This document shows positions 21,812-32,618 of a stretch of 32,618 bases of DNA, in pieces (position 1 is the stretch's first letter; every line of letters starts with the position of its first letter). The notes under the pieces were generated by a model. It was given only the letters and a program-made list of their open reading frames with translations. It had not been told where the DNA came from and did not search any database. The stretch lies in assembly GCA_017380615.1 (NCBI GenBank), contig JAFODQ010000014.1, positions 1 to 32,618 on the forward strand, written 5' to 3'. The stretch comes from Clostridia bacterium (GTDB lineage Bacteria > Bacillota > Clostridia > Oscillospirales > Acutalibacteraceae). The position numbers and the translations under genes are program-made.

Positions 21812-21980
21812 ATGGAAGATAGCTCTCCACCCTGAAAGGGTGACAACAGTAAGGATATTATTCCGTACTGCCAGAACGACTTTTGCCGGAAGCCGCCTTC
21901 GGCACCTGCTCCTTTCACCGCAACAGTCTTGGCGACCTTTGGGCTACGGTTACTGATAGCAAAATGCACCTCTATCGGTT
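21812..21980 (-). ncRNA. Lysine riboswitch (L box)
   Basis: Minus strand. The L-box landmarks appear in the usual order: GATAGAGGTGC at the P1 5' side, AGTAAC, GGTGAAAGGAGC, GCCGAAGGCGG, CTGGCAGTACGG, AATAATATCCTTACTG, and GGTGGAGAGCTATC closing P1 (GATAG with CTATC). It precedes dapA and a terminator, so lysine binding should stop transcription of dapA-lysA. The boundaries are approximate. Confidence 0.93.
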
Positions 21981-21986
21981 GTTAAT

Positions 21987-27239: not shown

Positions 27240-27270
27240 CATCAAGCGCTCGGAAAGAGAGTGTATATAT

Positions 27271-27348
<78 letters not shown>

Positions 27349-27352
27349 ACAA

Positions 27353-27387
27353 ATACAGGTTACCTTTTTGGTAGCCTGTATTTTTTG
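27353..27387 (+). terminator. Terminator directly after tRNA-fMet
   Basis: 12-bp stem ATACAGGTTACC / GGTAGCCTGTAT (one T-G wobble), TTTTT loop, followed by TTTTTT. Confidence 0.88.
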
Positions 27388-27401
27388 TTTCAGAATAGTT
27401 T

Positions 27402-27493
27402 GGGGGATTTGAACCTCCCCTCGCCGAAGGCGAACATAATCAGGTGTTCGCAAGTTTACTTGCGAATGATGGGCAGAGCCCATCAAATCCCCT
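27402..27493. repeat. Cloverleaf-like palindrome cluster beside tRNA-fMet
   Basis: The outer stem GGGGATTTGA (27403-27412) pairs with TCAAATCCCC (27483-27492), which lies in the second tRNA 3'-end copy. Inside are TCGCC-GAA-GGCGA (27421-27433), TTCGCAAGT-TT-ACTTGCGAA (27447-27466) and GATGGGC-AGA-GCCCATC (27468-27484). An alternative GCGAACA/TGTTCGC stem (27430-27436 / 27445-27451) overlaps the first two. The left arm extends to GGGGATTTGAACCTCC, an inverted copy of the tRNA T arm. Function unknown. Confidence 0.75.
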
Positions 27494-27508
27494 CTCCGCA
27501 ACCAACAA
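27483..27508 (+). repeat. Direct repeat copy 2 (orphan tRNA-fMet 3' end)
   Basis: Identical to 27327-27352, but the preceding bases are the GATGGGC hairpin rather than tRNA sequence, so this is not a functional tRNA. A hairpin CGAACCGA/TCGGTTCG (27511-27518 / 27527-27534) and then a terminator follow it. Confidence 0.85.
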
Positions 27509-27534
27509 TGCGAACCGAAAAAGATATCGGTTCG

Positions 27535-27573
27535 AAAAACCCTGAAACCACAACGGTTTCGGGGTTTTGTTTT
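27535..27573 (+). terminator. Terminator after the orphan tRNA 3' end
   Basis: 14-bp stem AAAACCCTGAAACC / GGTTTCGGGGTTTT (one T-G wobble), loop ACAAC, followed by GTTTTG. It could be the original terminator of the tRNA gene, displaced by an insertion. Confidence 0.8.
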
Positions 27574-32053: not shown

Positions 32054-32087
32054 AATGTATGAAGTAAAAAAAGGAGGTGCCCACCGA

Positions 32088-32348
32088 ATGCCAAACATTA
32101 AGTCTGCAAAGAAGAGAGTTCTTGTTAATGCAACAAAGGCTGCAAGAAACAAGGCAACTAACTCTGCTCTTAAGACAGCAATTAAGAAGGCTAACGCTGC
32201 TATCGACGCTAACGAGGCAAACAAGGCTGAAGCTGTTAAGGTTGCTGTTAAGAAGCTTGACCAGGCTGCTGCAAAGGGTCTTCTTCACAAGAACAACGCA
32301 GCTCACAAGAAGTCACAGCTCGTAACAAAGCTCAACAAGTCAAACTGA
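32088..32348 (+). CDS. rpsT: 30S ribosomal protein S20
   Basis: 86 residues, Lys/Ala-rich, all-helical. The canonical start [11 protein letters not shown] and the internal KKANAAIDA and [16 protein letters not shown] segments identify S20, which binds 16S rRNA in the body of the 30S subunit. Start ATG 32088 has AAGGAGGTG eight bases upstream; an in-frame ATG at 32055 precedes this SD. Single-gene unit ended by a strong terminator. Confidence 0.98.
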
Positions 32349-32371
32349 TTGCACTTTGTGAGATAAAGAAA

Positions 32372-32412
32372 AACCCCCGTAACGATGTGTTACGGGGATT
32401 TCTTTTTTTATA
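32372..32412 (+). terminator. Intrinsic terminator of rpsT
   Basis: 9-bp GC-rich stem CCCCGTAAC / GTTACGGGG, loop GATGT, followed by ATTTCTTTTTTTA. Confidence 0.93.
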
Positions 32413-32513
32413 ATGATTGTAATTTTTCGAAACGCAGTCGCGTTTCGAAAAAGCCGATTTTATCGGCTTTTAGCAAAATTTTTTTATAAATACAATTTTG
32501 CATTACACTCATT
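32412..32513. repeat. Cloverleaf-like palindrome cluster A
   Basis: The outer stem 32412-32423 (AATGATTGTAAT) pairs with 32502-32513 (ATTACACTCATT), 11 of 12 bases. It encloses TTTTCGAAACGC-AGTC-GCGTTTCGAAAA (32424-32451), AGCCGAT-TTT-ATCGGCT (32452-32468) and GCAAAATT ... AATTTTGC (32473-32501). The arms follow each other almost without linker, forming a perfect four-way junction, and the first two share an A-run. No gene lies inside. Function unknown. Confidence 0.8.
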
Positions 32514-32518
32514 GAAAG

Positions 32519-32611
32519 GATTATAGTCGAATTTTCGAAGAAAATTCGATACCAAATCATAATTTGGTATCGAAACAGTGTAATTTTACACTGTTTCGAC
32601 TAACTATAATC
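32519..32611. repeat. Cloverleaf-like palindrome cluster B
   Basis: The outer stem GATTATAGT (32519-32527) pairs perfectly with ACTATAATC (32603-32611). Inside are CGAATTTTC-GAA-GAAAATTCG (32528-32548), ATACCAAAT-CATA-ATTTGGTAT (32549-32570) and CGAAACAGTGTAA-TT-TTACACTGTTTCG (32571-32598). Architecture and size match cluster A, five bases away, although the arm sequences differ. TCGA recurs at arm borders. Confidence 0.8.
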
Positions 32612-32618
32612 GTTATAA

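What the first reader, a model, noticed from the sequence alone, without database searches (positions are those of the whole stretch)
32412..32611. Tandem cloverleaf-like palindrome clusters with shared architecture but different sequence
Two adjacent units (32412-32513 and 32519-32611) each consist of an outer stem of 9-12 bp enclosing exactly three perfect hairpins of 7-13 bp, stacked with almost no unpaired linker. Arm sequences differ between units, yet nearly every base is paired. Neighbouring hairpins share end bases, so alternative cruciforms are possible. This goes far beyond a terminator (rpsT already has one) and suggests selection for, or a mechanism that generates, four-way-junction shape: for example a mobile palindromic element, a substrate for a structure-specific transposase or recombinase, or a structured non-coding RNA.
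Basis: seen in the sequence. Interest (0 to 1): 0.75.

Follow-up and report, generated by a model that had tools for sequence, protein, structure and literature searches.

The report
Mobile double-cloverleaf repeat in gut Clostridia
This stretch is one copy of a small, apparently mobile DNA element, repeated through its own genome and found in several families of related bacteria, whose folded shape of two inverted four-armed cloverleaves is kept even where the letters change; what moves it and why the shape is kept are not yet known.

Summary
Window 32411-32611 folds into two four-way-junction units on either strand (RNA z -9.9 and -11.8, DNA z -12.3; 0 of 200 shuffles as good each time). It is one copy of a ~203-bp repeat lying at 17 places in its own genome, some in tandem. 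Copies were found in 13 of 60 genomes by sequence and in 11 of 394 genomes of the order (9 of 169 genera) with a covariance model of one unit. Unit 1 is an inverted homologue of unit 2. The fold is kept through compensatory changes. Empty sites and independently varying flanks fit insertion at TT-AT-AA with a 2-bp AT at both ends. I read it as a non-autonomous, MITE-like mobile element with an unusually elaborate conserved fold. No mobilising enzyme was identified; IS607 and IS30 profiles do not track it. Whether the fold matters as single-stranded DNA, as RNA, or is kept by template-switch mutation is open. A bias toward gene starts among 76 close loci (43 v 19) was absent in 15 distant loci (7 v 7). 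No Rfam family reached its gathering score.

The parts
32412..32614 (+). the element between its two AT dinucleotides: two inverted cloverleaf units, about 203 bp
   Evidence: 17 places in own genome; boundaries from flanks of copies
32408..32411 (+). left target half TT plus the AT core
   Evidence: AT in 64 of 64 readable left ends, TT outside it in 41 of 64
32615..32618 (+). right AT core plus target half AA, at the contig end
   Evidence: AT in 64 of 65 readable right ends, AA outside it in 48 of 65
32412..32433 (+). left terminal inverted repeat (matches AAYGRTTRTARTTNGTCGAAAC with one mismatch)
32593..32614 (-). right terminal inverted repeat (exact match to the same pattern on the - strand)
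32411..32514 (+). unit 1: outer stem 32411-32416/32509-32514 and 32418-32423/32502-32507; hairpins 32427-32448, 32449-32471, 32473-32501
   Evidence: matches the unit 2 model on the - strand, E 2.3e-9
32519..32611 (+). unit 2: outer stem 32519-32527/32603-32611; hairpins 32528-32548, 32549-32570, 32571-32598
   Evidence: covariation
32055..32348 (+). upstream neighbour rpsT (ribosomal protein S20), followed by its own terminator-like hairpin at about 32371-32409; not part of the element
   Evidence: Pfam PF01649; sequence

Best explanation
It is a non-autonomous mobile element (MITE-like) made of two inverted cloverleaf units, one beside each end. SHOWN: it is multicopy, bounded by ~22-bp inverted repeats, present at sites whose counterparts in relatives lack it, found in tandem and in both orientations in one host repeat, and its fold is conserved through paired changes. 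INFERRED: a transposase or recombinase encoded elsewhere recognises the two ends, each presented as a cloverleaf next to AT|AAYGRTTRTARTT, and joins them to a TT-AT-AA target with a 2-bp AT. Because two joined ends (AATCRTT-AT-AAYGATT) recreate that target, new copies also insert at old ends and give tandem arrays. The cloverleaves are kept because the enzyme acts on folded, probably single-stranded, ends. The enzyme and the last step are the weakest parts.
For: 17 places in the own genome, ten near full length at 96-100% identity. Tandem copies sharing one TTATAA on C99, C22 and C13, and a full copy joined to a remnant on C106. Empty counterparts: a repeat in G003 with a single TTATAA; seven loci of six genomes with a single TATAAT where L016 has the element; 18 relatives with a short operon gap where L045 has it. 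Opposite orientations at the same point of one REP-like repeat, L048 in G009 and L062 in G003. AT core in 64 of 64 left and 64 of 65 right readable ends while outer bases vary independently. Compensatory changes, inverted two-unit plan, spread over genera.
Against: No autonomous partner with the same ends in own genome or in the printed, cut-off list for 26 genomes. IS607: 0 of 48 genomes over cut-off; IS30 in none of 22 genus genomes. Y1 genes were not searched genome-wide. A two-base AT duplication cannot be told from an AT that belongs to one end. A plain end-recognising MITE would not need six conserved internal hairpins.
Confidence: 0.5

Rival explanations
1. The fold is selected as RNA: a mobile 5'-UTR or non-coding RNA module that stabilises, insulates or regulates the transcripts into which it inserts, as proposed for BOX or ERIC elements.
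For: Among 76 close loci the right end faces a gene start in 43 and a stop in 19 (p 0.003; full copies only 32 v 14, p 0.011); median distance to that start 43 nt. In L016 a promoter-like site lies directly before the element. In G031+G046 G-U variants outnumber A-C 15 v 5 (p 0.04).
Against: In 15 distant loci the right end faces start and stop equally, 7 v 7. G-U v A-C is 31 v 19 overall, p 0.12. The fold is as strong on the - strand. No transcript data. No Rfam family at gathering score.
Confidence: 0.25
2. The stems stay complementary through template-switch (quasipalindrome) mutation during replication, without selection on the fold; mobility needs only the ends.
For: Template switching can create stems and repair pairing (PMC8794818, abstract seen). 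Short perfect hairpins are the right substrate, and whole arms differ between lineages.
Against: The outer stems, about 80 nt apart, also covary (2 of 9 pairs in unit 2), and the plan of three hairpins inside one stem, twice inverted, recurs in distant genera.
Confidence: 0.15
3. It is the palindromic repeat of a Y1 (RAYT or TIR-associated tyrosine) transposase, i.e. an IS200/IS605-type system acting on single-stranded hairpins.
For: Hairpin-rich ends next to the joining point; a Y1-like gene (PF01797, 24.3 bits, cut-off 23) lies about 1.4 kb from a copy in G031. Y1 transposases flanked by inverted repeats are described (PMC3733652, passages).
Against: The DNA printed after that gene holds other short palindromic repeats, judged by eye. 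No conserved GTAG tag in the alignments. Y1 genes were not sought in the own genome.
Confidence: 0.12
4. An ordinary terminator or attenuator cluster belonging to rpsT.
For: Strong hairpins just after a gene.
Against: rpsT has its own terminator-like hairpin at about 32371-32409, and the same sequence lies at 16 other places in the genome.
Confidence: 0.01

Closest known systems
BOX, RUP and SPRITE repeats of pneumococcus
   Same: Short AT-rich non-autonomous repeats with predicted RNA folds; BOX can supply stop codons at gene ends (PMC3049150, passages); here some upstream ORFs also run up to or into the element
   Different: Those are over-represented between convergent genes (same passages); here convergent gaps are 3 and divergent 15 of 44 called on both sides. 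No inverted double cloverleaf is described in the passages seen
ERIC, Correia and other MITEs with structured transcripts
   Same: Inverted ends, intergenic, stable folds, can alter mRNA fate (PMC10969869, passages)
   Different: No sequence comparison made. The conserved two-unit junction plan across genera and the TT-AT-AA target are not in the passages seen
REP/REPIN repeats with RAYT (Y1) transposases
   Same: Palindromic, dispersed, arrays, hairpin-based (PMC3733652, passages)
   Different: No GTAG tag in the alignments; about 200 bp instead of 20-40 bp; no dedicated Y1 gene shown
IS30 family
   Same: Joined inverted ends and tandem dimers as reactive intermediates (PMC9333248, start of abstract in a listing); 2-bp duplication and palindromic targets recalled
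   Different: No IS30 transposase in the 22 genus genomes searched

Membership tests
MITE (general kind) | Short, no transposase of its own | tested here: met
   203 bp; no ORF of 80 aa or more starts inside it
MITE (general kind) | Terminal inverted repeats | tested here: met
   AAYGRTTRTARTTNGTCGAAAC at both ends
MITE (general kind) | Dispersed copies with empty sites | tested here: met
MITE (general kind) | Target-site duplication | tested here: inconclusive
   AT at both ends, which could be a 2-bp duplication or part of one end
MITE (general kind) | Parent autonomous element with the same ends | tested here: inconclusive
   None seen, own genome and printed part of 26 genomes (list cut off; draft assemblies)
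IS630/Tc1-type MITE | TA duplication | tested here: not met
   TA absent at 8 of 64 left and 8 of 65 right ends
IS30-derived MITE | IS30 transposase in carriers | tested here: not met
   0 of 22 genus genomes; 6 of 60 in all, G046 among them; the ends of those IS30 copies were not examined
IS607-type element | IS607 serine transposase in carriers | tested here: not met
   0 of 48 over cut-off; below it no match at all in carriers G009, G015, G021, G046
REP/RAYT | GTAG tag at the hairpin foot | tested here: not met
   No invariant GTAG column
REP/RAYT | Dedicated Y1 transposase gene flanked by the repeat | tested here: inconclusive
   One Y1-like gene 1.4 kb from a G031 copy, next to other repeats; own genome not searched
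Known Rfam family | Score at or above gathering | tested here: not met
   Only a lysine riboswitch and two tRNAs in the window; 66 matches in 32350-32618 all below gathering

The most novel reading that the evidence does not exclude
The cloverleaf itself is the heritable unit: a family of mobile elements, spread over several families of one bacterial order, in which an enzyme reads junction shape more than arm sequence, so that arms turn over while inverted four-way junctions beside a palindromic TT-AT-AA joining point are kept.
Probability: 0.2. Interest if true: 0.8.

Novelty: new variant of a known kind. Interest (0 to 1): 0.55.

Why it matters
Bacterial MITEs are usually defined by their ends. 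A family whose whole interior holds to a four-way-junction plan across several families of bacteria is a natural test case for what keeps palindromes intact: the moving enzyme, an RNA function, or replication-linked repair. It also lies close upstream of many genes in one gut lineage, and 10 of its 17 own-genome copies sit at a contig end, so it may be breaking draft assemblies.

Tried and rejected
4- and 6-bp target duplications: outer flank bases vary independently on the two sides (of 50 copies with both ends readable: left only 13, right only 12, both 2, neither 23). TA duplication: absent at 8 of 64 left and 8 of 65 right ends. IS607 and IS30 as mobilisers. Autonomous partner with the same ends: patterns in the own genome and 26 genomes (list cut off), plus seven stretches around unpaired or solo ends, whose ORFs I judged by eye except one searched against Pfam; none found. 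Viral contigs with one exact pattern, plasmids and phages: no match. Strand test by G-U v A-C: 31 v 19, p 0.12. The gene-start bias did not recur in 15 distant loci. Within genus g1 alone (38 copies) there is no covariation signal, -82.3 v -82.3. RNAalifold on the raw alignments missed stems through misaligned variable arms, and in g1 preferred pairing the two element ends with each other. A cruder gene-context script was replaced. One search for the flanks of L012 found no syntenic empty site. Paper searches for a described family of this kind: none in the lists shown; only openly licensed papers are held, so this is weak.

Full report
WHAT WAS CHECKED. Folding 32405-32615 gives them on both strands: RNA + strand -80.4 kcal/mol (z -9.9), RNA - strand -80.0 (z -11.8), DNA + strand -61.3 (z -12.3); none of 200 shuffles folded as well in any case. 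A further 500 dinucleotide shuffles had mean -32.7 and minimum -47.4 and paired at most 68% of bases, against 76% here. Unit 1 has an outer stem of 6+6 bp and hairpins of 9, 10 and 8 bp; unit 2 an outer stem of 9 bp and hairpins of 9, 9 and 12 bp.

IT IS A DISPERSED REPEAT. The window is contig C82 of a 1.97-Mb draft genome in 119 contigs, and it ends where the contig ends. The same sequence lies at 17 places on 16 contigs, ten near full length at 96-100% identity; the others are cut by contig ends or carry internal deletions. Ten of the 17 abut a contig end. C99, C22 and C13 hold tandem copies and C106 a full copy joined to a remnant, each pair sharing one TTATAA.

SPREAD. By sequence, 13 of 60 genomes (own included) carry it at E 0.001 or better: 9 of 22 of the genus, G025, G027 (weak) and G031 of the same family, and G046 of another family. 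An exact pattern of the right end in the species genome collection gave 27 stretches, all from MAGs titled Oscillospiraceae or Clostridia bacterium; where the title names a source it is sheep, goat or buffalo gut. A covariance model of unit 2 found 11 of 394 genomes of the order, 9 of 169 genera. Of these, G000 and G046 were known, G057 had been searched there without a match, and eight were new. Viral contigs (one exact pattern), plasmids and phages gave no match.

ARCHITECTURE. In the window, unit 1 matches the model of unit 2 on the opposite strand (E 2.3e-9). Of 16 distant loci given to the model (of 22 that fetched from genomes other than G000 and G046), 9 show an adjoining unit on the opposite strand at E below 1e-7. 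So the element is an inverted pair of cloverleaves with ~22-bp terminal repeats outermost. Variants: an element followed by half of another in G215 (L267), a longer unit of 146-148 nt in G276 and G218, what looks like a single-unit copy in G305 (L263), and one-hairpin minis in G031 and G015 (L291, L292).

THE SHAPE IS KEPT. From 80 matching segments at 76 loci I took 53 full-length copies, 52 distinct. 42 of 52 fold with exactly six hairpins. Mean MFE of the 52 is -81.4, against -69.7 when residues are permuted within alignment columns (12 permutations). For the 14 copies of G031+G046 it is -78.8 against -64.6; for the 38 of the genus there is no difference, -82.3 v -82.3, as expected of recent copies. 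In G031+G046, 19 double changes that keep pairing occur at 16 of 73 pairs, with 97% of cells paired. For unit 2, on 34 rows chosen from the 52 (33 distinct), 13 of 39 pairs have changes on both sides, with a covariation score of 0.159 against 0.080 shuffled (0 of 500 as high) and at most 0.052 when slid. The shuffles do not remove relatedness, and most double changes separate the same two groups of genomes. Distant copies keep the plan with quite different arms.

INSERTION. (a) L048 (G009) and L062 (G003) hold the element in opposite orientations at the same point of two copies of one REP-like repeat; L168 (G003) is a copy of that repeat without the element and with one TTATAA, though followed by two extra bases. 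(b) Seven loci of six genomes that match the left flank of L016 have a single TATAAT where L016 has TATAAT on each side of the element. (c) L045 has the element between two operon genes; of 19 relatives examined, 18 show a short gap without it and one runs off its contig. Across readable ends, AT is present in 64 of 64 left and 64 of 65 right; the two bases outside are TT in 41 of 64 and AA in 48 of 65, and deviate independently. This fits a palindromic TT-AT-AA target with a 2-bp AT, and not a 4- or 6-bp or TA duplication. An AT belonging to one end cannot be excluded.

WHAT MOVES IT. Unknown. IS607: 0 of 48 genomes over cut-off. IS30: 6 of 60 genomes, none of the genus. In the printed part of a cut-off list for 26 genomes I saw no pair of inward-facing ends 1-3 kb apart. 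A Y1 (IS200-like) gene, 24.3 bits against a cut-off of 23, lies about 1.4 kb from a copy in G031, with other short palindromic repeats after it.

GENE CONTEXT. With a home-made codon-model caller on 76 loci (53 with a full copy, 23 partial), the right end faces a start in 43 and a stop in 19 (14 uncalled), the left end a start in 26 and a stop in 30 (20 uncalled) (p 0.003, and Fisher right v left 0.015). Full copies alone: 32 v 14, p 0.011. Of 44 loci called on both sides, 15 are divergent, 3 convergent, 18 co-directional in sense and 8 antisense (sense v antisense p 0.076). Loci are not independent, since some share flanks. In 15 distant loci it was 7 v 7 with one uncalled, so the bias is not general. 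Some upstream ORFs run up to or into the element.

JUDGEMENT. A MITE-like mobile element is well supported. Its covarying double four-way junction goes beyond what the passages I saw describe for that kind. I favour a fold kept because the moving enzyme uses folded ends, but RNA-level selection and template-switch maintenance (PMC8794818, abstract) are live rivals; the strand test was inconclusive (G-U 31 v A-C 19, p 0.12).

Noticed in passing
window 21812-21982 (-): Lysine riboswitch, 80.3 bits.
   Followed up: no
window 27241-27571: The strongest raw fold in the window (-90.6 kcal/mol per 211 nt) lies around the tRNA at 27271-27345, not at the element.
   Followed up: no
L168, L179, L183, L170, L181, L184, L196 and others (G003, G014, G005): A different REP-like repeat family whose modules (e.g. 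TTATAATGTTTGGAAGCGAAGCTTCCCC) also begin or abut at TTAT(AA), with unrelated DNA on the other side; several palindromic families may share this joining point.
   Followed up: partly
L288 4003-4677 (-) (G031:C60): Y1-like transposase gene followed by short palindromic repeats of another type.
   Followed up: partly
L291 about 1655-1705 and L292 about 2044-2095: Minimal one-hairpin versions made of little more than the two terminal repeats.
   Followed up: partly
L265, L272 (G218) and L264 (G276): Unit 2 carries a much longer middle arm in these genomes (146-148 nt unit).
   Followed up: no
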